From Zygaena filipendulae (Eukaryota; Arthropoda; Insecta; Lepidoptera; Zygaenidae), in assembly GCA_907165275.2 (NCBI GenBank), contig OU015669.1, positions 6,656,501 through 6,720,500 on the forward strand: a stretch of DNA of 64,000 nt, read 5' to 3'. Positions 1,122-45,717 of the stretch are shown here, piece after piece (the stretch's first letter is position 1; every line of letters starts with the position of its first letter). The position numbers were made by a program, and so were the translations under genes. The notes beneath the pieces were generated by a model, which worked only from the letters and a program-made list of their open reading frames with translations, made no database searches and was not told where the DNA came from.

Positions 1122-1960
1122 TCAATCAAAATCGTCTTTATGTACCAGTCTTACTAAACTTGGAAACCATTTAAACTCGTTCGTGGAAGCATTCGCTTCG
1201 AGAGGCTTCACGTAATTTTCTGAATTTCTCGTGAAGTTTTCCTTTTCTGCAAATTTATTGGTGGAATCGGATATTGAAGTTGTAGGTCTTTTCACTGGAA
1301 CGAACTCGAATGTATCGTTATACTCAGACGTGTAAGACTTTTTCATCTCACACAAACTGTTGTCAACTATTTTGAATGCTGTAAAACAACCAAGTAGATA
1401 ACAAGTATAAACACAGAAACAATACGTTTACCAAGTATAAGTAGTTGGTAAGTAAGGTACAGCTGAATCCTAATAAACGCAAAGTCGAAACCAATGAATC
1501 AAAAAGATTTTTGAAAGTCATACATACTGCCAACTCTTCTGCAATTCACTTTGTATAACGTGCAAATATCCTCAAACTCAGCCAGATTGAGTCGTTTCTC
1601 ATCAAAACCGCATATTTTGGAGCCTCCAGACCTGCATCGATGATACCTATGGCAGTTATATGTAACCAAATCGTTCATTATGTCTCGGTCATACGGCTGA
1701 AATTATATTTAAAAAAAGATGTTTTTCATTTTACGTTATAATTGTTTTCGTTTAAAAATTCATTTTAAAATATCACTCACATTAATGCAATGAGTCGTGA
1801 TAAATAAAACTGAAAAACAAAAACGTTTTCGCTAGGAGTTATTAACAATCTGATAAAAATAGATCAATCAGTAAATCACCGTTCATTAATTATTATTTAG
1901 TCTATTAAGGAATAAACTATACCAACCCAAGTTACTAGTATAAATAAACAATAATTTCAT
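1122..1960 (-). CDS. K1: secreted Kazal-like protein with polar C-terminal tail (159 aa, 4 coding exons)
   Basis: Exons, in order of transcription: 1936-1960, 1781-1809, 1528-1696, 1122-1378; intron phases 1, 0, 1. The first two exons join to a signal peptide MKLLFIYT|ILFITTHCIN. The third holds five cysteines: C-x5-C-x7-C-G-x14-C-x6-C. The sixth follows 13 residues later on the last exon (DNSLCEMKK). About 80 polar residues rich in Ser, Thr, Asn and Glu come after it. Donors are A|GTAACT, GTGAGT and GTATGT; acceptors include TTTTTCAG and TTTACAG. The Kazal fold is inferred from cysteine spacing and the xCG-FED-C pattern, a family of extracellular protease inhibitors. The P1-position residue is Ser (C-R-S), not the His of most cluster members, so inhibition is not assured. 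K2 ends only about 150 bp upstream on the same strand. Confidence 0.8.
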
Positions 1961-2107
1961 TCTGTAAATATGAAATCACATTATATTTTAACTAATAATT
2001 ATAACTGCTTTTATTAAAAAAGAACGATCAGGTACATGCTAGTTGTAATGATTTAATAATAATTAAAACCTTTTTTTATATTTATATGCATCATAATTAT
2101 AATTTTA

Positions 2108-2591
2108 TTATAACGTTCGGTTGCATACTTTATTGGTCGTAACCATATAATCTGAAAATGAATAGTTGAAATGATACTTGTAGGTACATAATATTTTTAC
2201 TGACAAAAAAATCTAAAAATATTATATTCTAACTGAGCCAGTCATAATTTAAGATATTTCTTTTATTATTTATTAATTAATTTAGATTAATTTAGATAAA
2301 AAAAGGATAAAAGCGGCTTAAACCAAGAACTTGTGGTATGAATTTATTATACTTACTATGTCCATATCTACAATTGTGTTTGAAAACGTTGCATTCGTTG
2401 ACAAACATCATCGCCCGGCCTATCCTTCTGTCTCTGGCGCAAACCCGGGGTCCTTTACCCCTGCAGTACTTAGACCTCCAGCACCAGTAGTCAGAGATCA
2501 CTTTTCGTCTCTGCGGGGGGGCTCGGGACACCCTCAAGTTGGTCGAAGCACTGCAATCCGTGTGACCCTTGCAGCATGTCACTATTGTAAA
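2108..2591 (-). CDS. K2: Kazal-like protein, partial model (start exon not found)
   Basis: Two exons are visible: 2357-2591 and 2108-2151. The first enters after CTCATTCCCAG in phase 0 and ends at a GTAAGT donor in phase 1. The second enters after TTCATTTTCAG. Domain exon: a basic N-terminal stretch with three extra Cys (TCCKGHTDC), then WCWRSKYCRGKGPRVCA and FVNECNVFKHNC. The last cysteine (NKVCNRTL, then stop) sits exactly 13 residues after the fifth, as in most paralogs, which supports the splice. This is the most divergent member: CA replaces CG and Gly sits at the P1 position. It is GC-richer and Arg-rich. No signal-peptide exon could be found between 2592 and the end of K3 at 3215. It may borrow the K3 leader by alternative splicing (same phase), have an unrecognised leader, or be decaying. 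Confidence 0.6.
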
Positions 2592-3214
2592 CTGGGAATG
2601 AGAGATTGAGAGCTTTTAGGTGTTAGCCATTAAATAGCTGTAAGCTGACCCAGGCTTAACATAATTTTTTTTATTATCATTATGGACCACGTCTAAAGCA
2701 GGTATTGTGACCAGGTTAATAATTATTACCAGGAATAAAAGTCGCGGTCTTCCGCACTCCTCCTTTATTATTATAACAATCTAAAAAATCGTCAAATAAA
2801 AATGGACTCATCAAGTAATTTTTGTAAAAAATTGACAGTGTTCATAGAACCTAAATATATTACCCGCCATTTTGTTTTCATTAGTGGACAGTTTAGATTT
2901 CTCATCTTTCTTTTTTTTTCTGGAAATAAATCAGAAGTTTATCTAGTCATAGAACCTAATACCGAATAAATACTTAGCGCTTATTAAACTAAACCGGCGA
3001 GACCAACTTTAATAGTTAATCTATTATTTGTTTGCCAGTCCTCGATGATTTTCATGAGAATTATCTACTATTTGGTACCTACTCACTAATTTACATTGAA
3101 ATGAGAAAATATTTTTATAAATATTTGTATTTTTTAGTCAGACAATATCCACACTGATACAAGAAGACTTCTATGAGGAATCAAGCAACTTAATGGAAAT
3201 CGGATCCATTTCTT

Positions 3215-4783
3215 TCATTGAATTTTCTTAGATTTCCTTGAACGGAGCGCCGGTAAGGATTCGCAACGCTGTGGTTCGGTTTTCTGGAATTCTGAAAGTA
3301 GAACATTATTTTCATTACCTTATGTTATTGCTCATACAGATAAAAAGATCCTATCCAAAAAAATTCAGTCCATAAAAGTAGGCATCCTGTCCCCTTAGCC
3401 AAGTTGACAAACTCTAGTCGATATCGCTATATAAAACTAAGGCAGTTATCGTCATGTCACGTGCTGACGCAATATTGGATGACTGATTGGGCGATTTTTC
3501 TTAACCAAGTGGCATGACAATAAGTTCCTTAGTTTTCTAGAGCGATAACGATTAAAGATTGTTAAGGGAACTTATGAATCATATTTGTTAACCTGTTTTC
3601 TTTAAACAGTTATACTCCATCATGTCACAAGAGTCCAGGAACCTCCTCACGTTCCCCTGTTTGTCCTCACCACATTTCTCGCTACCATTATGTATGCAGA
3701 TTTTCGCGTGGTAACATATCTGAAAGACAAGTAAAATAGAATTTCAATGTCCCATTTAGGTACGAGTACATTAATGAGTATTAAGATTTTTTAAATATTT
3801 ACAAACTCACTTCACTAAGGTTTTAAGGGCCGTTTATATCTACAGACATAGAGCGTGCCCGACACGTTCCGTCGCAGTCACCAACAGGCACCGTTTATTT
3901 ACATCTGAGCGTGCCAGACACGTGCCGGGCCGAAACCGAGAGACATGTAGCCACAGACGCGGTCAGACATGAGCGGCGCCATAGCCGCGCAGACAAAATA
4001 TTCTTTCCGCGAATACTGTCTGTCGGCGTCTGCGCGGCCGTGTTACGATAGATATTATTTTGTCTGCAACGGAACGTGTCTGGCACGCTCAATGTCTGTA
4101 GATATAAACGGACCTTTATTGGTACTACAGGTATTCCACATTCATTGTTCAGAATCCATCAAGCATTTAAACTTTTCGGTACTTATCTTCATATTCATTA
4201 CTATGAAAACAGCTTTACACAAAAATATTATGTGTACGGGGTTAGACGGAAAGGGGAACCACCTATTAAGCCGCAAGCATTTTAGAGTAAGTATTATTGA
4301 TAACGAATTTATGTGATATATATGATATATAGTTCATCAACAAACGTTAATAATTATTATTATTGAGTGTTTTTTTTTTCCAAAATGTGCAGGTACCTAG
4401 CTATATACCACGATGTCCTAAATTTGCGCAGTAAATAGCTCAATTTCAATTAATTTAACTAGATGAGTTGTAGTAGGCTAAAATACACATAGGTATAGAT
4501 ACTTACTCTATTCTTATCCCAATCGCAAACCATGTCCGTTAACAAATAAGTCACGCCTGCAATAAAAGATTTATATAGCTGTAGATAATTTTTTTTATAT
4601 AATTATTTTAATCGCAATTTTTTTATTATAACATCCGTAAATTATATCGATCGCCAGATATTAGGATTAAAATTCGTGACGTTTGGTGTTTTGTTAACGT
4701 TTATCCTATAGGTGCCGCGCTATTTTTAAACTTATATTATCAAAATGTTAAACCTTACCAATACATAAAAATAACAAACGCAT
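3215..4783 (-). CDS. K3: small secreted Kazal-like protein (92 aa, 4 coding exons)
   Basis: Exons 4759-4783, 4507-4556, 3593-3719, 3215-3291; phases 1, 0, 1. The 25-nt first exon encodes MRLLFLCI and ends at a strong GTAAGG donor. It joins GVTYLLTDMVCDWDKNR to complete the leader. Domain exon: ICYHAKICIHNGSEKCGED, then RRFLDSCDMMEYNC. The last exon adds the sixth Cys 13 residues on (PQRCESLPALRSRKSKK), then a short basic tail and stop. His is at the P1-like position (C-I-H). Acceptors TTGTCTTTCAG and CTACTTTCAG are strong. A small terminal-inverted-repeat element (3392-3568) lies in the last intron. A predicted extracellular protein; its target is unknown. Confidence 0.82.
3392..3568. repeat. 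MITE-like element with CCCTTA ends in the K3 last intron
   Basis: CCCTTAGCCAAG at the left and CTTAACAATC-type inverted end at the right, with further inverted similarity inside (AAAACTAAGG). A relative with a CCCTTAGTCAAGTGGACAA end begins near 30552. Confidence 0.5.
3827..4113. repeat. MITE, family GTCCGTTTATATCTACAGAC, copy 1
   Basis: Inverted ends of about 45 bp read GGNCCGTTTATATCTACAGA followed by CATNGAGCGTGCCNGACACG. The middle is GC-rich and partly palindromic (GCGGCGCCATAGCCGCGC). Lies in intron 2 of K3; a second copy is at 40.24 kb. Confidence 0.7.
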
Positions 4784-5784: not shown

Positions 5785-7847
5785 ATGAATATTACAGTTT
5801 TTTCTCTGTTTTTTGCCATATTAGTTGGGAATTCCTTTTGCTGTAAAAAGAAGAGGGTAAGTAGGTGCCTACTGTTTGCGTGGGTAGCGCCCTACGCAGA
5901 TAACTAATATAAAGGCTTTGTATATTTTAGCTAAATTATGAGAACAAATACGGCAGAATAATATCTATGTAGGTATTATGTAATTTTGTGATTATTGGTT
6001 CAATACAGTGTCATCACATATTTGTAAAAAATATTTGATCATAATTTCATGTTCCCCGCGGTTTCACACCGCAGTAATTTTGGGGATTCCGCGGGAATTC
6101 CGGTATAAAAAGTAACTATGATGTTCTCTGTTTTCCCGACAATGTGCATGCAAAATTTCATGATGATCGGTTGGATCGTTATTCGTTCAGGTGTGAAAGC
6201 GTAACAAACAAACATTACTTTCACATTTTTAATATTACTAAGTATTACACCAATTAATATCTACTTTGAAAGGCTGCTGAGAATTCTCACAATTGCATTT
6301 CTGCCAATTTCTAAAGACAAAGCCGTATTTGAAATCGAAACATACCTGCCTACTAGTTGAAAATCTGTCGGCAAGCACCAACAATATGTTCCGGCAGCCT
6401 CACTTGAAAATCAGTTCACATTCAAATCTAGGTTTGTTTACAATCTTCAACCACACCTTCACCTAACCTCAGGTGAAATGTCTGCAATAAAAAAGCTGAA
6501 AATGACCTTTTGCAGCACGCATCTTAATAGGTACAACCTGCGCAGTTTTTGTAAATATTACCAGCATGAGAACAGTAGTTTCACCCATGTGAATTGCGGG
6601 ATTTATTGAGATAAAAAGTTTCATGGATAAGTTTTGTCTCAGAACATACACTATTTAAGAGACATTTTTCATACACTTTTAATTATTTTTGCGTAATGCA
6701 CATACAAACGGAGAAATAAACCAATAAGAACATAATGCTATCGATCGCTTCTTTCGAACCTATTCCATCTATTTATTTGTTTACATAGTACAAACAGTAT
6801 TCAATTCCTGCAAGAACTCCTTGTATCAGGATTCAGGAACCTTCGCGGGCGTACGCAAAACAACCTGCCAAATTTTCATCACAGTCGGAATATTGGTTCA
6901 GGAAAGCATTGCGTAGTATCAGAAAAATCGTTCACATGCTAACTCAAACTCAGAGAAACAGAGAAACTAGACGCAAATTCTTTTTTTAAAGTCATTGAAT
7001 AACAATGAGGGGAGAGGGTGCCGTATAGACAATAACGGAGTCCTTGTTGTTTCAGCCGACATGTCTGGATGCCTACGGTTGCGTTCACAACGGTAGGCGG
7101 ACATGTGGTTTGCAGCCAACCAACGGGGAAGTCAGGTGGTTCCTCGACAAATGCGATCTTCTGGAATTCAACTGTGAATACAAAACTAGTCAGTCATTAT
7201 ACTGTTCGTTCGTAATTTTGTCACAAATACGTCATGGCAGAGGCGATGTGTTATGGCATAGTGAATAAGAGCCCTGATTGCTACGCCTGGTGGCGTGGGT
7301 TATCCCCGCGTCAGAGTAAAAATTTTTGTTATGAATATTGATGTTTCCTCTGTCTGGGCACTTAGTACGTATCTATACATCAAAAAGAGTATATTATGGT
7401 AATTACAAGCTCTGCTTAGTTTGGAATCAGGTAGCGCTATGTCACAGTAAACAAGCATTTATTTTCTTTACTCCCGCTGTCGTTGTCTCGTTTTTCCGTC
7501 TATACGTCATTAAGACTTCATGTGAAAATGATTGCCGAACTGTAAAAACTGTACCTAGCTCTATTATAGAGTTCACTCTACACAATTTTTGGCATATCTC
7601 TTATCCGTCGTAATAAAGTTCTGTTCTCTTTATTTTTTTCCGGTGCTTGGATTGATTGTCCATCTATACATACAACTGATCTATATTCTGCAGCGTTAAA
7701 ATCGAATACTTACTTCAGTTGAACTGAACATTTGGATACTCTAAACGTACCTATAGTAAATTTTATCAATATTAATTTTCAGCTTTCGAATTAGTTCATA
7801 AAAGAAAATGCAGCCACGTACCGCCAATAAAGCTCAATTCAACGTAA
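5785..7847 (+). CDS. K4: small secreted Kazal-like protein (89 aa, 3 coding exons)
   Basis: Exons 5785-5856, 7056-7188, 7783-7847; phases 0 and 1. Exon 1 encodes an unsplit signal peptide MNITVFSLFFAILVGNSFCC followed by KKKR and a GTAAGT donor. Exon 2 reads PTCLDAYGCVHNGRRTCGL, then RWFLDKCDLLEFNC. Exon 3 brings the sixth Cys (HKRKCSHVPP) 13 residues after the fifth, then stop. The donor of exon 2 (ACTA|GTCAGT) is not ideal. Reading through it would instead add 26 unrelated residues and stop at 7266-7268. Directly before codon 5 of the leader is an ATTACAG|TT in phase 1, the same phase where the paralogs splice. An upstream initiator exon is therefore possible, but none was found. A SINE remnant sits in intron 2. 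Confidence 0.8.
6045..6235 (-). mobile_element. Helitron-like non-autonomous element in K4 intron 1
   Basis: Degraded copy: CCCCGCGGTTTCACACCGC, GGAATTCCGG, and a TTACGCTTTCACACC-type interior. Confidence 0.5.
7262..7450 (+). mobile_element. tRNA-derived SINE remnant in K4 intron 2
   Basis: Shares the tail segment AAGCTCTGCTTAGTTTGGAA and GGTAGCGCTATGTCACAG with the copies at 16.7 and 24.1 kb. The tRNA-like head is poorly preserved. Confidence 0.5.
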
Positions 7848-8022: not shown

Positions 8023-10511
8023 ATGGTTACGAAAGTAAATATTGCAGGTTAGTTCCTTAAAATACATGTAGGTACATTGCTTGCATTCATAGTGTATGAA
8101 AAAATTGTAGGAGCACTTTTGGAGTTTTCAAATAGTACTATCTCTATTTTTTTACCCTAAATCTATTTTAACATCATTTAATCAATGAATACATATTTAT
8201 CAAATACAATATTATTTGAATATTATGTCCATTTAAGTATGATATCGATCATACTTAAATGGACATAATATAATTATGTATTTTAAATACCTACAATCTT
8301 TCACAGACACATAAACTGTTATTTGTAAAACTTCTTTAGCCGTGACTATTTGCCCTATGTTTCGGTTGATAAAAGCAACTATAATAGTTCATGGTATAAG
8401 GTTAAACGAAAGACGAGGGATATTTGATATTCGATTCTTGTTCCAAATATTTAAAAACCATCTATCGTAATTTTTTTAAGTAACTATCCAATAAATGACA
8501 TCGTTCATGTAAACCTAGAGGCAATGATTTTTTTACCTTTAATACAATATCATTGCCTTAAAGTCATCAAACGCCCCTTTTCTTTGCATTATCTTCGATG
8601 AGCAAATGTCTAACCGCCGCACTCAGAGTCGACTTTAATGATTACTTAGTTAAGTATAGATTTTTGAAACAAAATTGCCGCAATCAGAGACGTTCAGTAA
8701 ATTATTGTTAATTGGCATTTAATGAGATGTAACTTAATTAGTTAAATGCCAATCAACATTAATTTATTTGACTTGTCTGATTGCGGCAGTTTTGTTTTAA
8801 AAATCTATACTTAACTAAGTAATCATTAAAGTCGACTCTGAGTGCGGCGGTAAGTCCGTTATAATTTATCAGTAGATTTTTTTTCTGTTGACTCGTTTTC
8901 TTTAGTCACATGGAAGCATAAATTATCAAGAGTATAACCTTCGTTTAATTTTACATGATGTTTATTAAATCTGACACAACGTAAACACCTGTTTTGTGTA
9001 CTTAAATAAATAAATACAGTTTTATATTTTCCAACAACGTAGAGGAAAATTTTACAGACTCGCACTTTTTTTGGTCGACGCCATTTATATTTGACTCTTT
9101 TTCAAATACGAGTAAATACTCTCGTTTATTCCTAGTTATCTTGCTGCTGATCCACGCCGTGGTAGCACTCGCCCACGGCCCGCCTTTGGAGCGAGATAAC
9201 GAAGACGTCGCTATGGGGAGGAAGGTAAAAAAAGTAATGGCAACACCCTTACATTTTTTTTTTAAACGGACATAAGATATTTTTCTTTAATATTTTTTCT
9301 TATTGATGTGTAACTAATCTTGAAGTGAGATTTAAGGAAGTGTGACGAGAATAATAACAACTTCACCACAACAACATATTCTTGTTGCCATAAAGCTGTG
9401 GTGATGAAACAAAACTATAAAACACCTACAATTCTTTGATTAAATGTCAAAATAATGGGTCTGTCACCAATGATAATTTAAATGCATCCAGCAAAATAGT
9501 TGCCATTTAAAGTGACACGACAAATATTGACAAGTGATAGCTATAAAAGCACATTTCGTAACAATTAGTCCCAAACTACTTATACCACTACCACAAAAGC
9601 TAAAACAACATTCGGTAACAATTAGTCCGATACTACAATTATCACGATAAGGTCAAAGACAGTAGAGCTTTTAAGACTGTGACGCGTTACTACGACTTAT
9701 TCTAATTGCTGAAGGTATAAATAAGGCTACCATGTAGCTTCAGTGTGGATTGTTGTACTTTATTGACTTGTTTACTGAGGTGGATTGCTGTGCAGCTTTT
9801 CTTACGGTGTCTACCTTCATAAAGCCTATGATAATCTATTCGTACATAGAATAGAATTAATAGAATTAACGTATAGGTTCTGTTCCTATGGATTTATCAT
9901 AGATCAAACTCCCGCCCTCTAAATAAGAAGCGAAATTTCTTCTAGCAGTTAGCTAATTGTTATTTTTCTTTCAGATGGGACCCAAGTGGTGCAGCATGGC
10001 AAAAGTATGCAACCATGACAGAGTGCCGATCTGTGGCATCAGCCACGCTGGTGACGTCATGGGTTTCAGAGACTTGTGCGACATGTTCGACTTCAATTGC
10101 ATAAGAAGGAGGAGTTAGAAACTTTTTGAATTTTTAGCTTGTTACTTATTAGTTAGGAGATACTTTGGGAAAGTTTTCTAGCTTTTCTAAAGAATTCGGA
10201 TAGCCTAGTCTAAATTTTAAATTATATATACCTACCCACCCTAGATCAGTCGTTCCCAATAACATTACTCTATATTATACACAGGTATTCATACCTGTTC
10301 AAATGGTGACCGACAAATTGAAAAATAAATAGAATCTGATACACGAGGGTGAATTTACATATCTGTAGTAAGGGTATTAAAAGTTTTCAATTCACTTTTC
10401 ATTTGATATTATCTCTATTTTATTTCAGATTTCAAGCAAACCAGCTGTCCTCAAGATAAGACGCTTCTGACCGTGTCCCGTCGACCCACCGGTGGTTTTT
10501 ATGACGAATAA
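8023..10511 (+). CDS. K5: small secreted Kazal-like protein (111 aa, 4 coding exons)
   Basis: Exons 8023-8047, 9136-9224, 9975-10113, 10429-10511; phases 1, 0, 1. The 25-nt exon MVTKVNIA (donor CAG|GTTAGT) joins VILLLIHAVVALAHG, a clear signal peptide, followed by an acidic linker. Domain: PKWCSMAKVCNHDRVPICG, then GFRDLCDMFDFNC. The last exon supplies KQTSCPQDK and a basic tail. The donor of exon 3 is A|GTTAGA; without splicing the frame ends at once at the TAG inside it, giving a protein that lacks the sixth cysteine. A conserved P-x-CG and His at the P1-like position match K8 and K9. A 237-bp foldback MITE lies in intron 1. AATAAA overlaps the stop codon. Confidence 0.82.
8221..8270. repeat. 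Perfect 50-bp palindrome in K5 intron 1
   Basis: Two 23-bp arms beginning TATTATGTCCATTTAAGTAT, four-base centre, no mismatch. Confidence 0.8.
8614..8850. repeat. Foldback MITE flanked by TAA in K5 intron 1
   Basis: Long inverted arms of about 110 bp starting CCGCCGCACTCAGAGTCGAC. TAA directly abuts both ends (8611-8613, 8851-8853), like the 3-bp target duplication of PIF/Harbinger elements. Confidence 0.75.
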
Positions 10512-12876: not shown

Positions 12877-13783
12877 ATGCCTCTTTTATGTGGCAGTGTT
12901 TTGTTTATTATTATATTATTAACGCCAGTTGTGAATTCTCATTTAATAGGAGATAAAGCACATTTGGTAAGGTTTTAAGAAAGCAATGTAAAGGTTACTT
13001 TGATAAACAAAAAAATTGTATGGTGTTTTATTGTAAAAGCTTTGTAAGGAGAAACAGTTCGCATATAACTATCGCAAAAAAAAATTCAAAGATCAAGAAC
13101 TTTTCAACTAAATTTATTTTTATTTATTTATTTACTAATTTACAAACATTGATAACAATCTGACAGTGCTACATAAACCGTTTTAGGTTTTTCCGTGCAC
13201 CGACACATCCGTCGTTATTCGTATATAGGTATAAAATGATTCTACAGTCGACAGATAAACAGCCAGATTGCCTATTCAAACACAAAAAATATTCATCCAT
13301 ATTGTTGCATTACATATTTTTTCTATTTTTGAGCTTAATTTCAGGTTAGCTTTTATCTTTATCAGCCCTGTTACTGATTGTATTTGCAGACAGAATTAAA
13401 GAAGCTCTGTGACCATGCATACTCCTGTTTTCACGACATGGTTATCATTTGTGGAAAATCTGTCAACGAAGCTAGAACGTTCCTTGATCTATGCGATCTG
13501 TATGAATACTCCTGCGAGTACAACATGGGTATGTTTCCTAATAAAAAATTTTGAAGTATTTCCTGACGTGCGTGTACGCAATCTGCAGTAGGTATTACGC
13601 TCAATGATACATTTATGTAATTTTAGTTTTTCATATCAAAAGGCGAAGAAGTTAAATATGAGAGTGATTTAAATTTTATTTATTTTATGTAGGTAGTAAT
13701 ACAAAAATATATTTTTATTAGTTTACAGGCACGTTAAAGAAGAAGAAGGTGTTTGTCCAAATCCCAAAGAATTGGGTAAATAA
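12877..13783 (+). CDS. K6: small secreted Kazal-like protein (96 aa, 3 coding exons)
   Basis: Exons 12877-12966, 13390-13528, 13722-13783; phases 0 and 1. Exon 1 encodes MPLLCGSVLFIIILLTPVVN, a strong unsplit leader, ending at a GTAAGG donor. Exon 2: KKLCDHAYSCFHDMVIICG, then RTFLDLCDLYEYSC, ending G|GTATGT. Exon 3 uses TTTTTATTAG and reads HVKEEEGVCPNPKELGK, then stop, giving the sixth Cys. A second AG eight bases later is out of frame with this Cys and would give a Lys-rich end without it, so it was not preferred. An arthropod initiator-like TCAGT lies 15-19 bp before the ATG. AATAAA overlaps the stop. Confidence 0.82.
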
Positions 13784-13933: not shown

Positions 13934-16163
13934 TTATAGCTTAAGCTCACATGAGGGCACTACGGAAAATTCTGAAAGAAAATACTGAACGTCAATAACA
14001 TACCTACGTATGATAGAAAATAATGTAATGCATTAAGAGATTATTTTTATTTCGTCGAACCACTCATATTTATAATAACCACTTTTGTAATGATGGAACT
14101 TAAATTAAAGACATAAGATACAAGTGGTAAATAGAGTAGATTTTAGTCTGCACTATAAGCAAATAAATTTGAGCTGAAAAAAGAACTATGATCATTTTTA
14201 TGAAACCTGGCGCCACTCTACAGTGTCCAACAGTAATCATATATATGTCGTAAAAAGCCTTTTAGGGTGTAGTTCATTAGGGGAACTTCAAGCGCAAAAA
14301 TATATAGGTACCTACCTAAGTTTTTTACGCGTGTACATTTTTTTCCAAATTCATAAAAAATGTGGATTTTTGTATGAACCAAGCCCACTCCCAAACATTG
14401 TCCAACAGTGACGTGACGTTTAATATGTTTTAGGCTTTTATTTCTAGACAAACTTTTACCACTTACTGTATTTCCAATAACAGTTTACGTGAAGCATATG
14501 GCAAACATCCTCAAATTTCGCGTATCCGATTACATCATCAAGTCCACACACGGTCTCATTGGTCCTATGACAAATAGCGGCTACTGAACACCAATGATCG
14601 ACATTATCTTTATGTTTCTGTTCATATGACACTAGATTTTTACTTATTAAACTTTTAGTGACTGGCTGAAAATGAAACTTTGGTCTAGTTTATGACTGGA
14701 TATAGATAAGCAATAGTGTGTTAACCCACACTGGAGAAATGAGTAAATTATAGCGTCATTTTGTGTCAGCATTTTTTAAGTTCAACATTTTGTTGGTATT
14801 TTAGTAATGTAATAAGGTAATTGAGAATAGAGACACGTTGTCTCACGCCATATGTTGGACGTTTACTTGGCGCGAGACACTAACGTGTCTCCGGAACACA
14901 TAATTTTAAAAACTTTCTATAACTCTCAATAAAGCGTTTTGTACCTATCAATAACTTAATTTTGTGGGTTAACATGTTATTGCTTATCGGCGTCCAACTA
15001 AGACAACAGGGTGTATGGAAAAGGAAAAAATATGCCGCGCAAACTTACAAGTACAAAAACAAAAGAGAGTGGCCATTAATTTTTATTAGGTATTATTTCA
15101 AATAGGTATTGATTATTTAAAGACAATCACCAAATCGTATCTACTATTTAACTGAAATACTTAGTTTAAGATTATGCCTATTAATTTACATTACATTGTA
15201 ATTCATTGATTAAACATTATCTCACCTTTTTAACCGATCCATCACGCTGTACCAAGACTGTAGGATCGTGTTTATTATGCAACTGGTTAAGTAAAATGTC
15301 TGTAAATAATATACTGTACTTTGGTATGTTTTTTCCGAGCTTAGTGAACGGATCGGTTTCGTCCTCTACATTTGCTCTACGCGTGGCACGTATCGGTACT
15401 TCTAGTTTTTCAAGAGATTTAGGTTTCTTCAGAGCGAGGTCATTACTGAAATTTTCTACTAAAGCCTTAGTCTGATCTTCAATGCTTTCAGTCATTTTCA
15501 ATAGATGCTCCAAAGCTTGTGTATGTTGTATTAATTGCTCTTCTATGAATTGATTATTATTATTATATTTTTTAACGACCGTATTCAATGATTTCTGCAC
15601 AAAAAAATTCAAATAGATAACCTTTAAAATAATATGTTTCAACTTTCAACACGCTTGTTCTTTAAGTAATAATTTAATTACCGTATTGATACGTTTAAAT
15701 TTGATTTTTTTTTCTTATTTTTTTTTTGTTTCTTTTAGTTTTTTAATAAACTTAATATTTTTGTTACATTTTTGTTTATTTTGTACTCACAAGTATGTTG
15801 AAAATCGTAAGAAACAAGTGAGCATATCACTCATTATCATAATACATACTTACAACATAATAATAATTGTTAATTAAATGTAATTCCAGTCTAATATTTC
15901 GAGTGTACATTAAGAGCTTTAAGGATTTCCTTATTTTTTATACTGCAGATTTATTAAGTTAGCAGATTTATTAATAGCAATAAGGACTTGTCACTTATAC
16001 ATTACCTTTCCAAGCTGTTCCTCAGCTACTTCACGTATTCGCACTTGATGCGAATACTGTACCAGTATTATTAACGTCGTAACTAAAATTTAATTAGCTA
16101 ACATTAAATAAATCGGATAAAGTAATCGGATAGTTTACTAGTATTCAAACGAGCATGCAACAT
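13934..16163 (-). CDS. K7: secreted Kazal-like protein with a 123-residue inserted exon (219 aa, 5 coding exons)
   Basis: Exons 16139-16163, 16006-16082, 15226-15594, 14467-14617, 13934-13971; phases 1, 0, 0, 1. Leader: MLHARLNT|ITTLIILVQYSHQ. An extra 369-nt exon follows, entering after TTTTTGTGCAG and leaving at AAG|GTGAGA. It is hydrophilic and probably helical (QFIEEQLIQHTQALEHLLKM), with no cysteine, and resembles nothing I recognise. Domain exon: HWCSVAAICHRTNETVCGL, then AKFEDVCHMLHVNC. The last exon, after TTTTCTTTCAG, gives VVPSCELKL and stop. The P1-like residue is Arg, the one member with a trypsin-type P1. The inserted exon is phase 0 on both sides, so it can be skipped without changing frame. 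The gene is convergent with K6, about 150 bp apart. Confidence 0.78.
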
Positions 16164-18758: not shown

Positions 18759-21700
18759 ATGATTCGTAAACTGTATGTATTTGTAAGTGTTCAGTTAGTA
18801 TTAGTCACATAAAAGTGTTTTATTTTGAATACCTATATTAATTTAAATTTTAATTGTTGCTGATTCAGAGATGTCACGACAAGAAAATTATGTTGGTCCA
18901 TCATGATAATACCACTTGGTACATGATTTATTTTGTTTAATAAGAAAAAAAAAGAAACGATATTTTTATAGATATAAGAAGAGGATGACTATAGTGATTT
19001 ATATTTTATTTTAATAGCTATTTATGTCAGCAGTTTCATATGTGTGTTTTTTTTTTAAACCGACCTATAACAAACGTAGTGATTATTTGCTTAGTGCCTA
19101 TAACACTAAGGTAATATTTCTCTTTGTATTGCTTCTTGCTACTCGTAAGCTGTAGCTTAATAGGAATATAACCTATATTCCGAAAGTGATTTTAGCTTTA
19201 AACTATTTCGGCGCTTCTTTTTATTATGTCAGTCAATCAGGCATTCCCTTAATTATCCTACTAATATTATAAATGTGAAAGTGTGGATGTTTGGGTGTTT
19301 GGATGTTTGTTACTCAATCACGCTAAAACGGCTGAACAGATTTGGATGAAATTTGGCATGTTCTCAGGGGTACAGAGAAGCACATAGGGTACTTTTTATC
19401 CTGGAATTCCCGCGGAACTCCGAAATCACCGCGGGTGAAACCGCGGGGCACAGCTAGTTATAAATAAATTAAATAAATTAATTCATTCGTCCATTGGACT
19501 TTTTACTACCGGCTATAACATATTATATGAGTACTTAATATTCAAAGTTCATTTTCAGCTATCTTCGCGCATTTTATACATTCAATATCTGCTCATAGCG
19601 AAAGTATCAAGGTAATTATATAATTGGGTACTTTATACATTAATAACGATAAATTTTTATTATATTATAAAAATATTCAATTACATAATATAATGCAATA
19701 TAAATCTAACTGATACCGAAAGTAGGTATGTAAGTTGGGCGGGTACTAACGTTTATGCGTTAAAGCGGACAAGGTCGGCCTCAATAGTCTTCAGTATGCG
19801 GGCAGTTCTTATAATATCCTGAAGATGACATTATAAGGTTCGAAAGTAGGCGAGGGACTAGAGTCCTCCGGCTAGCTTTATTTCAGTAATTAAAAGCTGT
19901 TTTATTCGTAAGAAACTTTTTTTTTTTTATAAGTAAGTACAATATTTAAGATGACCAGGAGTCCGTCAAAAATATCAAATACATCAAATTTAAAATATAA
20001 AAAGAACAGATTATATGGTGGAAATATGGTGTAATAATAGTAGATTATACACCAAGGGGATAAAGCACTGTTTTATGTCACGGGCGCTACATTGAATCCT
20101 GAACATAACGAAGGACTCCAAATTTAACTCCCGAGCGCAGCGAGGGTGTTATAAGTTAATTCCCGACCAAAGGGAGGGAATTAAGATTGAGTCCTGAGTG
20201 CAGTGAGGGATTCAAGCGCCCAAGAAAAAAACAGTTTTATCCCTGTGGTGTATACTCTACTTTTCTCACATAATGCGAGACAATAAAAAACCAGGCTTAG
20301 TAGATCCTATATAGCCACTTCTTTCAGCTGGCGTGGCCTACTCGATTTGACAAACAAATGAAGTTCGTCTCACTGCGAATCTAGTGGGCCACGGCTTCGG
20401 TCTTCGAAAATCGAGTTGGCCGCGCCCGCTGAGAACACATTCTGTTTAGCGAAATGAGACGTTATGGACATAGCAATAAGAATTATGAAAGTGAAAATCA
20501 CATTATTGACCAGCGGGCTATAATGAAATTCAATAGAACATTATAACCCGGCTAAAGCCAAGAGATATAATGTCTTGCTTTCGGTAAGGTTTACATGACA
20601 TATAATTCGGCATTGTCGAGCATGTGGTGTGAAAAAAGTATTAAGTACACCTTATTTCCACTAAACGGCTAGTCGCGAGCGGCTGGCCGCGACTCGCGAA
20701 TAAATACGAGTACGAGAGCGCGACTAGTCGCTTAGTGGAAATAAGGTCTTAGAAATGAGGCGGGATATAATATGAGTGGCATATAGCCGCCTCGTTACAA
20801 CATCGCGCTAGCGTGACTCTCCTCTTATTGTCAGGTTCACTGAGCTACATGTTAGACACGTGGAGGAGTGAACCCAATAGCTTTGCTGTTCCAAAATTCT
20901 AAATAATCAGTAGGTAACATTAAAAAGACTTTCTAACGAGTTTCGGACTCAGCTGTCTGGTATAATGTAGGTATACATATGTAGGTAACAAAATTATATT
21001 TTGATTTTAATATTAGGTAGGTAAGTGTAAACGCCATCACGGTACAAATTTCATTTATCAAACAAATAATATTATTTGTTATTTCAGAATGAAGAACAGT
21101 GTAAGATAGCCGATTTGTGTGTCCACGACAAGGTGCCTATGTGCGGGATCGACTCGTGCGGCGAAATGCGAACCTTCATCGACACGTGTGACATGCACGA
21201 GTTCAATTGCGACAGTAAAAAAGGTACTTATTAATTATTGTTTCCGAACAAGGTTGCCACCCGTACTATATTATACCTATAGTATCGTACTATATTTCAG
21301 TCAATTGTATCTACTATATACATATTTTAGAAAAATAATATAGTACGAAAAATTCTATATTTTTATTCTTAATTCAACTTTCACGCTTTTTTATATTAAC
21401 TGTGACTGCATGGTCTGGAACGCACCCGCAGCGCAGCACGGGGAATATCAGAACGAAACGCATACGCGGCAACAAAACGTCAACTGTCAAATTGGCAATA
21501 ATTTTTATAGATGAATGCTCAATTCTGCCCAATACATAATGATTTAAAATAAATATTATGTACAATTTTTTCCCTGCATTTCCCAAAAGAACGTAGGTAC
21601 TATATTTTTGCATCTTTATTTGGAAAAATACTATATTTTTCCAAAGAAGGTGGCAACCCTATTTCTGAATAGCAGTTAGAATAGCACACGCGTTAATTTG

Positions 21701-22229
21701 GAAGTGCCTCTAGGAACTCCGTGAGATTCGTTCTTAGGCGTCTCAATAAGGAAATACGCACTGAACCCATAATGGATGTGGATAACGATGTGGTATCTAA
21801 CAGGAATGATCTTGTTCTTAATATTGATAGGATCAGAAAAAGAAACAGCAAATAGTTACGTATAAATGGCCCTAGAATTTCATACAAAAAAAGATATATT
21901 TGAAGTTTGTTACTGTATCATCAATTGCTGAATTTCGATATTTTTAAAAAAACAACAGTCCTATTTTAGTTATAAGTAGGTAACTGTGATATTAGTGAAG
22001 CTATTTTTATAGTATTTCGAGATTTAGTAAATGATCTGTTGAACTTTATACTAAAACCCGCTGTACTTAGGTATCCCAGGATGAAGTCATAGTTTTCGAT
22101 GCATTTGTAGATTTTCAACAGCGACCAATTCACGAATGTTGGGTAACGTGCAAAAGAGGACGATCTTTCAAGAAACCCGAATACAGAAGTGACTGCAACA
22201 TCAACAGTGTTAATAAGAATAGACATTAA
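18759..22229 (+). CDS. K8: small secreted Kazal-like protein (111 aa, 4 coding exons)
   Basis: Exons 18759-18786 (least certain), 19559-19611, 21088-21223, 22111-22229; phases 1, 0, 1. Leader: MIRKLYVFV|TIFAHFIHSISAHSESIK. The donor of exon 1 (GTAA|GTGTTC) is weak; a better GTAAGT four bases earlier is out of phase. Domain: EEQCKIADLCVHDKVPMCG, an extra Cys in IDSCGE, then RTFIDTCDMHEFNC. The last exon reads PIHECWVTCKRGRSFKKP, with two or three more Cys, then a short tail. It is nearly identical in the domain to K9, so the two are a recent tandem pair. AATAAA overlaps the stop. A MITE with GGTTGCCACC ends occupies the last intron, and a Helitron-like element lies between exons 1 and 2. Confidence 0.8.
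19256..19457 (+). mobile_element. Helitron-like element with well-kept ends, between K8 exons 1 and 2
   Basis: Begins TCCTACTAATATTATAAATG and ends CCGCGGGGCACAGCTAG after a GC hairpin. The base before is A and the base after is T, as expected for Helitron insertion. Confidence 0.75.
20037..20263. repeat. MITE with TAGAGTATACACCA-like inverted ends in K8 intron 2
   Basis: Ends GTAGATTATACACCA and TGGTGTATACTCTAC are inverted. The interior carries GAGCGCAGCGAGG and TAATTCCCGACC segments. The related GAGCGTAGCGAGAG occurs in the element at 32.5 kb. Confidence 0.65.
20650..20746. repeat. MITE, family CCTTATTTCCACTAA, copy 1
   Basis: Inverted ends CCTTATTTCCACTAAACGGC with a GC-rich partly palindromic middle (GTCGCGAGCGGCTGGCCGCG). 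Confidence 0.7.
21251..21660. repeat. MITE with GGGTTGCCACC ends in K8 last intron, copy 1
   Basis: AGGTTGCCACCCGTACTATA at the left, GGTGGCAACCCT at the right. Interior repeats of TACTATATTTTT. A second copy lies at 63.36 kb. Confidence 0.75.
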
Positions 22230-26500: not shown

Positions 26501-27291
26501 AAGTAAATGAATTTTCGATCAATAAATTTAAAAGCTTATATAAGAAAAAGCCTATTATTATAATGTGAGTGAGTACTTGAATGATGGACAAACTTGGAAC
26601 TGAGTTGTTCCACTAGATTTCGCAGTGTCATCATTAAATTGCATCAAAAAATACATTGCCTAAATAATGATGTTGTGTTGTGCAGTGTGCTACAGTGGAG
26701 TTTGCTCAGCTTCAGCAATGACATTAGACGTGAAGGTGAAGGTGTGAAGGGCGGGCAATAACGTGATATTTGACTTTGTTATGTCGTCAACTGCTTTAAA
26801 ACAAAAAATGTTAGCTACTCAATAGTGTGACCTGACTATTATCCCCCACCCCACTGTCAACCCAGTCTGTCGTCTAGTCTAGGCGGTGTCGTCAAACCTG
26901 TGTATTAGAGGCTAGCTTTTTCCCCGCAGTTTTACCCACGTCAGCTTTTGGATTTCCTTGGGGGCAACTGAATCCCTGAGGGAATTCAAATGTTGACGTG
27001 ACGACGTCATTTCGGTTTACTGTATCTTCCTATCAGTGAAGGAACTTTTAGGATCGTTTCAGTAGTTTCAGAGATTATCATCTACATTCAAACTTACAAA
27101 ACACTCTTTCTAATATTAGTGTAGATAGATTACTACGCGTGTGGTTTATAGGACATGGCGAAATAATTTGTGAATTTACAGATTTTGTCCAGAAACCAGT
27201 GCACGAATGCTGGGTGACTTGTAAAAGAGGCAGAAGTTTCAAAAAACCCCTATTCGCAGCACCAGATTGTGATAAACAAAACCTCGTATAA
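23594..27291 (+). CDS. K9: small secreted Kazal-like protein, sister of K8 (109 aa, 3 coding exons)
   Basis: Exons 23594-23677, 24191-24326, 27182-27291; phases 0 and 1. Leader: MNSYLLNFLVIWALLLFKTT, unsplit, donor GTAAGT. An in-frame upstream ATG at 23576 would add six residues. The later one is preferred because a TATA box at 23546 places transcription start near 23575. Domain: EECNIADICRHDQVPICG, IDACGE, then RTFIDTCDMHEFNC and donor GTGAGC. Last exon: PVHECWVTCKRGRSFKKP, APDCDKQNLV, stop. The K8-type CWVTC motif and extra Cys are kept. The acceptor of exon 2 (TTTTTATTAG) abuts a SINE. The last intron is about 2.9 kb and full of repeats. AATAAA overlaps the stop. Confidence 0.83.
23975..24190 (+). 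mobile_element. tRNA-derived SINE immediately before K9 exon 2
   Basis: tRNA-like head with A-box-like GGTGCTGTGGTTAAC and B-box GGGTTCGAATCCCGGG, then the family body GTTCTGCTTAGTTTGGGACC and a T/A-rich tail. That tail ends in the AG used as acceptor for K9. Confidence 0.65.
24367..24515 (-). mobile_element. Helitron-like element in K9 last intron
   Basis: Reverse-oriented CTAGCTG end, diverged hairpin, then TAAAAACTACCCTATGTCCT and the GGCATGAAAGCGTGCC interior. Confidence 0.5.
25330..25387. repeat. Microsatellite-like (ACGTATATT)n array
   Basis: Five or six imperfect ACGTATATT units, each near-palindromic, beside the large foldback that follows. Confidence 0.7.
25390..25742. repeat. Large foldback with about 105-bp arms in K9 last intron
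   Basis: The left arm, ATCCCGAAAGTCAGTTGGGC onward, is repeated inverted at the right. Each arm contains GCGGCCGC, a fossil CAGCTAG Helitron-like end and GGCGCCGGCGTGGGTGTATA. The spacer is about 140 bp. Confidence 0.8.
26085..26192. repeat. MITE, family CCTTATTTCCACTAA, copy 2, in K9 last intron
   Basis: The right end GCCGCTTAGTGGAAATAAGG is intact; the left end is worn. Shares GGCTAGTCGCGAGCGGCTGG with copy 1. Confidence 0.7.
26905..27125 (-). mobile_element. Degraded Helitron-like element before K9 last exon
   Basis: GCTAGCTTTTTCCCCGCAGT and an ATTAGTGTAGATAG far end; the hairpin is nearly lost. Confidence 0.4.
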
Positions 27292-41018: not shown

Positions 41019-42740
41019 TCAACTTTCATTGTGATCACCGATTACAAACGACTGTAGAAAATTATCCGCAGTATTAACTCTTCTTTTTGGAAAATGTGTG
41101 GTATCATCTAAATATTTAACTTTATCCCCAAAATGATCTCTTAAGACCTGAAAGAAATCTCTGGTTTCTCCTTTAGCCGTCGTTTCCCACGTTTGGGGTC
41201 TTTTGCAGTCATTGGGATAGGCATCACAACTTGTTTCAGATGAATTATTTTGACCTGTTGTTGTTTCATTTATAGTTTCTGTTACGTTGGGAGATGTACT
41301 GACTGTACTACTTGTGTAATTGCGTTTTGTAGAGGTAGAATTACTCGTGGCCATTTTGTTTTTCTCTGTATGGCGTGTGTTTTTGGTGGATATTTTAGTC
41401 GCTTTCGTTGAATAAGTTTTAGTTATTTTTTCTTTAGTCGAAGAACTTTTATTTTTAATTCCATTTGTTGAGAAGACGATACTAGACGCTGTCGACTTGG
41501 AATCATTTGGTGATACTGATGTAGTTACTGGAGCAGGAAGAATAGTCGGAACAATATTTGGAGAGGATATATTAGAGCCACGTAACATGAAAATATTTTT
41601 AATATAAACGAAAATGTTAGGAAGAGTCGACGATAGCATCGTTGCCGTGATTGAGGATGTTGTAAGGGGTTTACAAGTTATAGGCGTAGATTCTAGAGTC
41701 GTCGAGTCAAGGGTCGTAAAATCAATGGTAGTAGGTTCATTTGTCGTAGATTTTTGAGAAGTGGATGAATGAGTTGTAGATTTATTCTTTTTAAATTGTG
41801 ATGTCAATGCAGATCTAGAAACAGTTGATGCTAAGTTCCGAGTGATTGAAATCGGTTTCTTTGATGATTTACGTGTGCTGGTTAATGTAGATTTTATTTT
41901 AGTTGAGGTAGTTATTTTATTTGTTGATGATGCCTTTTTGGCAGGTTTGTCAGGTGTTGTTTGTAAAGTTTTTTTCGTCAACAATGTTGTGTCAGTAATA
42001 ATATTATCTTCGGTCGTCGAAACAACAGCAGTTGTATATTTATTTGTTGATATTCTGCTATTTGTATCGTTACACTCGTCTATGTCAACTTTATGATATT
42101 CTGTAATACAATGGTTTTCAATTATTACATTGTTTTTTCAGTGACTAAATTCATTATTATTTTATATACTCACCTTGAATATTATAGCAGTTATTTTCAA
42201 CCATATCACAATCGTCTCTGAATAGTCTCGTGCTTAAATCTTTACTATCACGACCACATTGTGGGATACCTGAATGCTTGCAAGGGTTGATAAGCAAACA
42301 TGCTTCTTGAGGCTGAAAATGAACAAACATCGAGTCGTGGTAGCTTGAAATATGGAATGGTGGATAAACTGCTGATCTGCTTTGTATCTTTTATTTTATA
42401 TAGGGTTACTCCAGTGATCTAGCTGTCCTTAGTGCCCTTAGGGCCTTAACTCTTTGGGTAGAAAGTACAGACGTCTTACCGGTACAAAACTTTGGCTCAA
42501 AGGCACAGGAAACGTGGACACAGCAACTGAAAAACAATTCAAAAATGTTTACAATATTTAAGATCCTCACCACCATCATCATATCAGCCGTCGTCACGTC
42601 CACTGGCCCACTGGACATAGGCCTCCCCCAAGGATCGCCACAATGACATGGAGTATAAAAATCTTTCGTAAAAATATGTAATAGTAAATGAAAGTAAGTA
42701 GTAAAATCTCACCAAACAATTGCAAAGCGCGCTGATGCAT
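41019..42740 (-). CDS. K10: secreted Kazal-like protein with long Ser/Thr-rich tail (431 aa, 4 coding exons)
   Basis: Exons 42713-42740, 42480-42526, 42174-42312, 41019-42100; phases 1, 0, 1. Leader: MHQRALQLF|VAVSTFPVPLSQSFVP, the first exon ending at GTGAGA. Domain: QEACLLINPCKHSGIPQCG, then RLFRDDCDMVENNC. The last exon begins EYHKVDIDEC, giving the sixth Cys 13 residues after the fifth and matching K11. It continues for about 330 residues dominated by Thr, Ser and Lys (for example TSTKIKSTLTSTRKSSKK), with one more Cys pair near the end (ETSCDAYPNDCKRP). Such a tail is typical of heavily O-glycosylated mucin-like proteins of extracellular matrix, silk or gut lining. The end (FFQVLRDHFGDKVKYLDD) is less repetitive and may fold. 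The P1-like residue is His. Confidence 0.8.
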
Positions 42741-42929
42741 TGTGTGTATTTTATTGCCTTAGTAACTATTATTTTCTGGGTATACCCATACCCATATACT
42801 GAGTTATAGCTCAGTTTTATAGCAGCAATAGTGGGAGATAAGATACAAACCGATATAACACAATGGATATACATAATACCTATCATATATTCTATTTTTA
42901 TTTTGTTCTTCATAACACGATGACAGCAT

Positions 42930-43200
42930 CATTGTTCTAGTGGTTAGCAATCCCAACTGCTACGACAGGTGTCGCGGGCTCAATCACCGCATCAGGGTTA
43001 AACATTATATTATGATCAACATTAATTTTTACTGTGAATTAAGGTTTAATAAAAAGTACGTGCAACATAAATTATTATGACAATAAGGTGGGAGTATTAT
43101 ATCAGTTATCTTGTACCCATAGTACAGGTTTTGCTTATTTTGGTACCGATTGGTGCTGTGTGACAATGTCCAAGCTTCATTATTGTTAGTTTATTATTTT
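42930..43200 (+). mobile_element. tRNA-derived SINE upstream of K10
   Basis: Head TTCTAGTGGTTAGCAATCCC, worn B box GCGGGCTCAATCACCGC, and body GGTTTTGCTTATTTTGGTAC. Ends in an ATTATT-rich tail. Confidence 0.55.
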
Positions 43201-43201
43201 A

Positions 43202-43405
43202 CTAGCTGTTCCCCGCAGTTTCACCCGCGTTAATTTCGGAGTTCCCATGGGAATTCCAAGAAAAAGTACCCTATGTCCTTCTCTGTGCCCCGGCAACGTG
43301 TATGCAAAATTTCATGGTGATCGGTCGGGCCGTTAAGGCGTGAAAACGTAACAAACAAACAATCATACAGACCAATCAATCATTTTCGGATTTATAATAC
43401 CTACA
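43202..43405 (-). mobile_element. Helitron-like element between K10 and K11
   Basis: CTAGCTGTTCCCCGCAGTTT; interior TTAAGGCGTGAAAACGTAAC. Confidence 0.7.
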
Positions 43406-43566
43406 TAGCAAGGATAATAATCTGCGAAGGAATGATATAAAAACTCACTGTTGCATATCGCTATGAAATATCGTACTTTTTCACTGCATGCACGCCGTTT
43501 TCATACTTGAATCATTGAAACACAAAATAGTCTTTTTCATTTATTCAAATCACATAATACTATATC

Positions 43567-45717
43567 TTATTCCAAATAATCTGACTCTTCGATAACTTTC
43601 AATGATTTATTTTTAGAGCGAACAAATCCTTTTATGACTCTCACCATTTTAACACCGTTCCTCACAATGGTTTCGCGTTTTAGTATCACTGTTTTTGGAT
43701 TTATATTTATTGTACTTTCAGTAGTGATGGGGGCTTCGATGGTATCTGTTTGGGTGTACGGGTGCGTTCGATGGTTTCGACGCCTTTTAGGAAAATATCT
43801 CCTTTTCCCTCGCAACATGTGCAACGGTAGAGAAACGGGCGGCGTTGGAACGGTCTGGTGCACCGTGTTCCTCCGCATATTGCGGGTTACTGAGACGCAA
43901 CCACCGCACTTGGTTTGATAAATGATTCTTTGTCCCAGCCTGTGACGGCGATGGTCTGCACACGGCGGGTTCGATGGGCACGAGAATGATGGACAAGTTG
44001 TCCAGAGGTTCGTTTCAAAGCACTTCGATATGTTCACTTTGATATAATCTGTAATACAATCGAGAAAACCAAACTAGTACCACATGAAGTATGTAAAACC
44101 ACTGAAGACACAATAAAATTGGACATATCCTAACTGGGTATTTACCACGATTTTACCCATGTCTTTTCGGCATTATAGATTGGATTTAAAAAAACCTAAG
44201 AAAGTATTTATTCTATGCCTCAGTATCTGTAGATAATCTCTGGATCTACTGAACCGGTTTTGAAAATTCTTCTACCAATAGAATGCTAGTGTTTCTGAGT
44301 GTCATAGTACTCATAGGGTATGTCTTATCTCGAAATTCCCGCGGGAACTCTAAAATTACCGCGAGTGAAACTGTGGGGGACCAGCTAGTAAAGAATAAAA
44401 ATATAAGTTCATTGAAACCTTCTTGATGGTCACAATTGAATTCCAACATATCGCAAGTGTCCAAGAATAATCTGAAGCTCGTGTTTCTAGTTTTGCTCCG
44501 ACCACATTCGGTTATCCACGTGTGGTTGCAGATGTCCGCCAGCAAGCACCAACCCAGAGGCTTTGGACAATTTGAAATCAATATATTTATTTACTCGCAT
44601 TTCCCTCGCAATAGATAATACTGGCTGCTCCCCGCGGTTTCACTCGCATTAATTTGGGAGCTGTCGCGGGCATTTTGAGACACAAAGTACCCGATGCACT
44701 TACCCTTGACAGCGTGTATGCAAAATTTCACGATATTTCACCGGCATTAATTTCAGAGTTCCCGTGGGAATTCCGGGATAAAAAGTACCATATGTCAGTT
44801 TCGAAATTCTCGCAGGAACTCTGATAAAATTAGCCTAACTCCTTACAACATCAGCTGCCAGTGAAATCATCAAAAAATCGTTCCATGTAAATATGAGAAA
44901 ATGAATTTTCTTCGTAAATTTTTTTCTTAAATTTTTCCAATGTTTTACTATTCGGGGCAAAGTCAAATCCAATAAACCAAAGACCATGAAAATTGATCCA
45001 GCCATTCTCGGACTCCGTAATTTCTATACTTACTTATATATAATTTTAAGACAGATGATTTTTGATGACTCTTCAGTCTTCTTAACCATTTTATTATTTT
45101 TATACCCTTGTTTCTATAAATAATAAGGAGCTATGTTCTATAATTTGTAATGTAATTTGTTTTTTATAACTTACCCATATGAAATGCTGATTTGAAGGCA
45201 ACGATATGAAGAAGGTGCCTGTAATAGAAGCCAGATATTAAAATAAAAGGCAAATGCTACCTTAAATAGATAGACTCACGAAACTTATAGTTTACGATTT
45301 CCAAGGTATTTGAGGATGTACGAGTATGTGACATGTGCCTTTCATGTGCTTATAACAAAAAAGTAAGTATTATTCAACATAAAGAGTAGCTACACCTATA
45401 AGGTACAGCGGACAAAGTTCACGAACGCAATCAAATATAATATATTATGTGTAATTGTATATGCACCTACACCTTAAAGTTCAATAATTTGAGTGGTTTT
45501 TTTGGACGTAGCGTAACTGCATATGCGCTGCTTATCAACTTATGGACATTTATTATGCTTAGTAGTTTTTTGAGACTGATTGTAATTGAATAGAATAATA
45601 AAACCTTTTTCTCGGTCTATAATTTAATCAATCATCGTGATCGAAAATTAATTCACTATGTTTAAATTACAAATATTTGCTTTTTATACCGATTATTATC
45701 AAAGTGTAACTATTCAT
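43567..45717 (-). CDS. K11: secreted Kazal-like protein with Cys- and Arg-rich tail (231 aa, 4 coding exons)
   Basis: Exons 45690-45717, 45175-45218, 44419-44560, 43567-44048; phases 1, 0, 1. Leader: MNSYTLIII|GTFFISLPSNQHFIW; the first four residues equal those of K9. Domain: GWCLLADICNHTWITECG, then RLFLDTCDMLEFNC. The last exon, after TATTACAG, starts DYIKVNISKCF (sixth Cys) and adds at least six more Cys (TCPSFSCPSNPPCADH, TKCGGCVS). A basic segment with RGKRRYFPKRRRNHR follows, then a Thr/Ile-rich part and KSLKVIEESDYLE. Dibasic runs could be processing sites. The acceptor of the domain exon (GTCCAAAG) lacks a good pyrimidine tract and the donor GTTTCA is weak. The domain boundaries nevertheless agree with all paralogs. 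The region is gapped by Helitron-like copies. Confidence 0.77.
44222..44388 (+). mobile_element. Helitron-like element in K11 last intron
   Basis: TCTGGATCTACTGAACCGGT body and GTGGGGGACCAGCTAG end, the subfamily also at 47.5 and 48.0 kb. It begins about 170 bp downstream of the last K11 exon and ends about 30 bp before the domain exon, so it fills the intron. Confidence 0.65.
44620..44870 (-). mobile_element. Two or three worn Helitron-like ends in K11 intron 2
   Basis: CTGGCTGCTCCCCGCGGTTT followed by TTAATTTCAGAGTTCCCGTG and TTTCGAAATTCTCGCAGG, about 70-120 bp apart: nested insertions. Confidence 0.5.

What the first reader, a model, noticed from the sequence alone, without database searches (positions are those of the whole stretch)
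1122..45717. Undescribed-looking cluster of eleven Kazal-like secreted-protein genes
Eleven paralogs plus one decayed copy share C-x5-C-x7-C-x(13-16)-C-x6-C-x(10-15)-C with a fixed intron pattern. In eight of eleven the fifth-to-sixth Cys distance across the splice is exactly 13, although each join was predicted separately. Kazal domains are established extracellular modules; the assignment here rests on spacing and the P-x-CG and F-D-C motifs. Short exons would hide most members from automated annotation.
Basis: partly seen in the sequence, partly recalled or inferred. Interest (0 to 1): 0.9.

Follow-up and report, generated by a model that had tools for sequence, protein, structure and literature searches.

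The report
Conserved moth cluster of Kazal-fold genes
A stretch of moth DNA carries eleven related genes for small secreted proteins of the Kazal fold, most with the same unusual amino acid fixed where related protease inhibitors usually vary, which suggests one special partner rather than many different enzymes.

Summary
Eleven paralogous exons carry C-x5-C-x7-C-x(13-16)-C-x6-C, with a GT donor exactly 16 nt from the fifth-Cys codon in 11 of 11. Database orthologs match the models of g5, g8 (no first exon), g9, g11 and the last 67 of 96 residues of g6, sixth-Cys distances included; six joins lack such support. The decayed copy is not supported. The Kazal reading holds for the fold: the profile's five PDB hits are Kazal or follistatin-type (two with E below 0.01), and a model of one ortholog (pLDDT 80) matches Kazal structures, greglin first, at modest scores. 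Printed Pfam Kazal_2 scores stay below the cut-off. Fused entries and shared contigs indicate linkage kept across moths and butterflies. New: conservation at the contact site is reversed from that reported for inhibitory Kazals. P1 is His in 8 of 11 window genes and 76 of 76 homologous domains; the usually conserved P15' Asn is Asp in 10 of 11 and 76 of 76. I infer one ancient binding partner, or a repurposed reactive site; no function was tested.

The parts
1122..1960 (-). g1: exons 1960-1936, 1809-1781, 1696-1528 (core), 1378-1122 (sixth Cys and tail, stop). P1 = Ser
   Evidence: join not supported by an ortholog
2108..2510 (-). g2: core exon about 2510-2357, sixth-Cys exon 2151-2108; no leader exon assigned. 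P1 = Gly; P15' Asn kept
   Evidence: most divergent copy (branch 5.55)
3215..4783 (-). g3: exons 4783-4759 and 4556-4507 (split leader), 3719-3593 (core), 3291-3215. P1 = His
5785..7847 (+). g4: exons 5785-5856 (leader), 7056-7188 (core), 7783-7847. P1 = His
   Evidence: core matched by P0033, P0034, P0035; last exon not supported by an ortholog
8023..10511 (+). g5: exons 8023-8047, 9136-9224, 9975-10113 (core), 10429-10511 (x10). P1 = His
   Evidence: about 79% identical to P0038 over 105 residues
12877..13783 (+). g6: exons 12877-12966 (leader), 13390-13528 (core), 13722-13783 (x15). P1 = His
   Evidence: 76% identical over 67 residues to the second domain of P0036
13934..14665 (-). g7: core exon 14665-14467, candidate sixth-Cys exon 13971-13934 (x11); upstream exons uncertain (an open stretch ends at donor 15226). 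P1 = Arg
   Evidence: the weakest model
19559..22229 (+). g8: exons 19559-19611 (second leader exon; first not found), 21088-21223 (core), 22111-22229. Nine Cys. P1 = His
   Evidence: 83.5% identical to P0019 over 97 residues
23594..27291 (+). g9: exons 23594-23677 (leader), 24191-24326 (core), 27182-27291. Nine Cys. P1 = His
   Evidence: 77% identical to P0002 over 107 residues
41019..42526 (-). g10: exons 42526-42480 (second leader exon; first not found), 42312-42174 (core), 42100-41019 (x13, then a long Ser/Thr-rich tail). P1 = His
   Evidence: no ortholog found
43567..45717 (-). g11: exons 45717-45690, 45218-45175, 44560-44419 (core), 44048-43567 (x13 and a long tail). P1 = His
   Evidence: about 41% identical to P0070 over 235 alignment columns, window residues 1-231

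Best explanation
An old lepidopteran cluster of genes for secreted single-domain proteins of the Kazal fold (non-classical type, near greglin and the termite TFP4). Shown by sequence: paralogy of eleven genes, the shared phase-1 intron between the fifth and sixth Cys, leader exons, and orthologs of at least five members. Supported by profile and model: the Kazal fold with a nine-residue loop from the second to the third Cys. Inferred: most members present this loop to one conserved extracellular partner, most likely a serine protease or an inactive protease homolog, read through a histidine at P1. Because P1 is fixed while flanking sequence changes, the members would differ in where and when they are secreted and in their tails (Ser/Thr-rich in g10, extra Cys in g8 and g9) rather than in which enzymes they bind. 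g1, g2 and g7, with Ser, Gly and Arg at P1, would be the branch with other targets or none.
Confidence: 0.5

Rival explanations
1. The reactive site has been given up: these are non-inhibitory Kazal modules that bind a ligand or receptor, as follistatin-type modules do, and His/Asp are kept for structure or for that contact.
For: P15' Asn is Asp in 76 of 76; C4-x6-C5 spacing and hits to FSTL1, follistatin and WFIKKN2. Odd number of Cys (nine) in 20 of 20 full-length g8/g9-type proteins, as a covalent dimer would need.
Against: The loop length (C2-x7-C3) is kept in 11 of 11, and the best hits by sequence and fold are inhibitors (greglin, TFP4, infestin).
Confidence: 0.3
2. Ordinary non-classical Kazal inhibitors against diverse digestive or microbial proteases, with P1 His a relic of shared ancestry.
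For: The fold and the company of greglin and TFP4, which inhibits chymotrypsin and elastase (PMC4433142, passages). g1, g2 and g7 do vary at P1.
Against: Diversifying inhibitors should vary at P1; here it is fixed among groups that share only 25% mean column identity. P1 His is outside the Lys/Arg, Tyr/Phe/Leu/Met and Ala/Ser/Leu/Met classes listed in PMC4433142 (passage).
Confidence: 0.15
3. Unrelated Cys-rich secreted proteins whose spacing only resembles Kazal.
For: Weak Pfam scores and modest fold scores; single weak matches to Toxin_37/termicin (E 0.007) and DUF19 (E 0.02).
Against: Profile hits in the PDB are Kazal or follistatin-type in 5 of 5, and Kazal_2 matches 16 of 19 orthologs at E up to 1.
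Confidence: 0.05

Closest known systems
TFP4 of Coptotermes formosanus (PDB 2n17), non-classical group 1 Kazal inhibitor of the defence gland
   Same: Best PDB profile hit (E 9.8e-05); shares the stretch R-T-F-x-x-x-C-D-x-x-x-x-N-C
   Different: [quoted passage not shown] inhibits chymotrypsin and elastase
Greglin (PDB 4gi3), locust Kazal-type inhibitor crystallised with subtilisin
   Same: Second profile hit and first fold match; C4-x6-C5
   Different: Leu at the P1 position and Asn at P15', as I read the alignment
SPINK9 / LEKTI-2
   Same: Histidine at P1 (PMC12670400, passages)
   Different: Mammalian skin protein; not compared by sequence here
Bombyx mori Kazal genes BmSPI59-68
   Same: Lepidopteran Kazal proteins (PMC3278429, passages)
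   Different: Passages give P1 Lys/Arg for BmSPI60, 61, 64 and Ala/Val/Gly for BmSPI66; the tandem groups named there are serpin and TIL. Sequences were not compared with the window
Follistatin-type Kazal modules (FSTL1, follistatin, WFIKKN2)
   Same: Fold matches
   Different: Here the domain stands alone, with no EGF-like part before it in the models

Membership tests
Kazal domain (fold) | Six Cys with a nine-residue loop from the second to the third Cys (PMC4433142 passages) | tested here: met
   C2-x7-C3 in 11 of 11; a sixth Cys can be joined in 11 of 11, supported by orthologs for five
Kazal domain (fold) | Central helix and three-stranded sheet | tested here: met
   Model of the ortholog P0057, pLDDT 79.7; one ortholog only, not a window protein
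Kazal domain (fold) | Closest solved relatives are Kazal | tested here: met
   [not shown]
Kazal domain (fold) | Pfam curated cut-off for Kazal_2 (a detection limit rather than a defining feature) | tested here: not met
   Printed scores up to 17.1 against 22.8 bits; bits of the best member (E 0.00089) were not printed
Kazal domain (fold) | Disulfides I-V, II-IV, III-VI | not testable with these tools
   No coordinates of the model were inspected
Inhibitory Kazal proteins | Conserved Asn at P15' | tested here: not met
   Asp in 10 of 11 window genes (g2 has Asn) and 76 of 76 homologous domains
Inhibitory Kazal proteins | P1 in one of the usual classes | tested here: not met
   His in 8 of 11; Ser, Gly and Arg in g1, g2 and g7. 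SPINK9 shows that His need not abolish inhibition
Inhibitory Kazal proteins | Inhibits a serine protease | not testable with these tools
   Needs an assay

The most novel reading that the evidence does not exclude
A lepidopteran Kazal lineage in which the evolutionary rule of the contact site is turned round: P1, normally the variable residue, is locked as His, and P15', normally the fixed Asn, is locked as Asp, through duplications older than the split of Plutella from other ditrysian moths. The pair would form a dedicated, perhaps pH-sensitive, docking site for one conserved extracellular partner, with nine-Cys members (g8, g9) acting as covalent dimers.
Probability: 0.3. Interest if true: 0.7.

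Novelty: new variant of a known kind. Interest (0 to 1): 0.48.

Why it matters
If true, a whole set of conserved but unnamed moth and butterfly proteins, often fused or uncharacterised in databases, gets a fold, a correct exon structure and a sharp prediction: a His/Asp contact pair that should decide binding. It would also give a natural case for asking when a Kazal reactive site stops diversifying and becomes tied to one partner.

Tried and rejected
Decayed twelfth copy: searched by profile, tblastn and local alignment with shuffled controls; nothing above chance. First structure job with leader peptides gave a poor model and was not used. Rfam found no RNA family in the window. Single Pfam matches to Toxin_37, DUF19, Kazal_CFAI and AIMP2 were set aside as below cut-off or single. 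Foldseek rows such as PXR, vaccinia H7, PI3K and Hfq also appear at E above 1 and were taken as noise. The tree has 37 columns for 64 rows: groups g8, g6 and g4 come out as one side of a branch (97/95, 100/100, 92/72), but g5, g9 and g11 do not (two changes each, with other groups nested within them), and g1, g2, g7 have long branches, so I do not argue from its deep forks. Paper searches returned nothing; no expression data were found. No paper was read whole: passages only for PMC3278429, PMC5309989, PMC12670400, PMC4433142 and PMC6950245; the others were seen as listings.
Full report
What was checked. A six-frame scan found eleven stretches with C-x5-C-x7-C followed by C-x6-C at the stated spacings, at 1541-1654, 2370-2483, 3606-3716 (minus), 7062-7175, 9990-10100, 13408-13515 (plus), 14480-14590 (minus), 21100-21210, 24203-24313 (plus), 42187-42300 and 44432-44548 (minus). 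I number them g1 to g11. A profile of the eleven scores them at 65-81 bits and nothing else in the window above 8.3 bits. Six columns are identical in 11 of 11 (five Cys and one Phe).

Gene structure. Measured from the first base of the fifth-Cys codon, a GT lies at offset 16 in 11 of 11 genes; the next most frequent offset has 6 of 11. So a phase-1 intron sits between the fifth and sixth Cys in each. Sixth-Cys exons join at x13 in eight genes and at x10, x15 and x11 in g5, g6 and g7. Leaders: a path from ATG to the core was found for g1, g3, g4, g5, g6, g9 and g11 (7 of 11), only the second leader exon for g8 and g10, and no settled leader for g2 and g7. Control: random 1-kb stretches offer an x13 join in 73 of 600 trials, so joins without an ortholog stay provisional.

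Orthologs. Three protein searches gave 77 proteins. Seven have no named source; the organisms named for the others are, to my knowledge, all Lepidoptera. By best match of the core, 76 domains from 73 proteins fall to g5 (32), g9 (20), g11 (13), g8 (9) and g4 (2); four proteins without a full core (P0014, P0023, P0031, P0032) were dropped, and the truncated first domain of P0034 and the second domain of P0036 were missed by the pattern; both have His at P1 by eye. Alignments: g9 to P0002 77% over 107 residues, g8 to P0019 83.5% over 97, g5 to P0038 79% over 105, g11 to P0070 41% over 235 columns, g6 to P0036 76% over 67. The proteins are annotated predictions, not all of them backed by transcripts, but they were made independently of the window models. 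Their fifth-to-sixth Cys distances agree: g8 13 in 7 of 9, g9 13 in 14 of 20, g5 10 in 26 of 32, g11 13 in 9 of 13; the exceptions are mostly truncated or fused predictions.

Linkage. Six entries fuse neighbours: g4+g5 in Euphydryas, Aphomia and Operophtera (P0033, P0034, P0035), g5+g6 in Spodoptera exigua (P0036), g8+g9 in Plutella and Operophtera (P0001, P0014). Plutella holds g5, g8 and g9 (P0058, P0019, P0013). Since Plutella is, as I recall, an early branch of the ditrysian moths, these three groups and their linkage are probably older than that split. The tree needs 10 changes for 11 labels, the least possible, but it is short of columns and leaves g5, g9 and g11 unresolved.

What is odd. 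With C2 as P3, P1 is two residues on, and the P15' position lies two before the fourth Cys. P1 is His in g3, g4, g5, g6, g8, g9, g10 and g11, Ser in g1, Gly in g2, Arg in g7; in the 76 homologous domains it is His in 76. P15' is Asp in 10 of 11 and in 76 of 76 (g2 has Asn). In 39 aligned homologs only A35, H40, P44, D59, D62 and N67 are invariant besides five Cys. In the window set H stands at 8 of 11 against a mean of 4.8 for non-Cys columns, though Asp and Ala at two other columns also reach 8. A passage on ShSPI states the opposite pattern for Kazals: P3 Cys and P15' Asn highly conserved, the other ten contact residues hypervariable (PMC6950245). PMC4433142 lists P1 classes for trypsin-, chymotrypsin- and elastase-like enzymes, none with His (passage). 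P1 His is known in SPINK9, which inhibits KLK5 with Ki 65 nM and where His was called suboptimal for the S1 pocket (PMC12670400, passages). The sampling is biased: the queries mostly carried His and homologs of g1, g2 and g7 were not found.

Mechanism, shown and inferred. Shown: paralogy, splice position, leaders for seven, orthology for five, the contact residues. Supported: Kazal fold. Inferred: secretion into an extracellular space, and binding of one conserved partner through the His-bearing loop (about 0.5); loss of inhibition in favour of a ligand or receptor contact (0.3); ordinary diversified inhibition (0.15); not Kazal (0.05). A pH effect of P1 His is a guess from chemistry.

Novelty. 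I file it as a Kazal-fold family, not as shown inhibitors. None of ten paper searches listed a description of such a lepidopteran cluster; in the passages seen, the silkworm survey names ten Kazal genes and tandem groups of serpins and TIL proteins (PMC3278429). That is no proof that it is not in print.

Limits. The window's own genome could not be searched. The organism was not identified beyond a moth or butterfly; the resemblance of g9 to the Operophtera entry P0014 hints at a geometrid but is not a test.

Noticed in passing
window 9136-9233, g5: The part before the Kazal core, HGPPxxxxxxxxx[MI]G[RK]K, is kept in 30 of 30 orthologs that have it; Gly before two basic residues looks like an amidation and cleavage site of a peptide precursor (motif recalled). 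A second donor 9 nt downstream in the window would give the VKK insert seen in 10 of these 30 proteins.
   Followed up: partly
window 43567-44048, g11: The tail carries a basic site (RGKRRYFP in the window) that recurs in 8 of 13 g11-group proteins, the others being mostly truncated, and a conserved end like ...NGK..KV.KG...DFLE.
   Followed up: partly
window 21088-22229 and 24191-27291, g8 and g9: Nine Cys in the mature part, an odd number, in 20 of 20 full-length g8/g9-type proteins and in both window genes (read).
   Followed up: partly
window 41019-42100, g10: A long Ser/Thr-rich, mucin-like tail follows the Kazal core; no Pfam match.
   Followed up: no
window 55390-55479, plus strand: Stretch matching Pfam synaptobrevin (27.4 bits, cut-off 26.4): probably an exon of an unrelated neighbouring gene.
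   Followed up: no
window 15217-15645, minus strand: Open stretch of 142 codons ending at a strong donor upstream of g7; it may be a long N-terminal exon of g7; no Pfam match.
   Followed up: no
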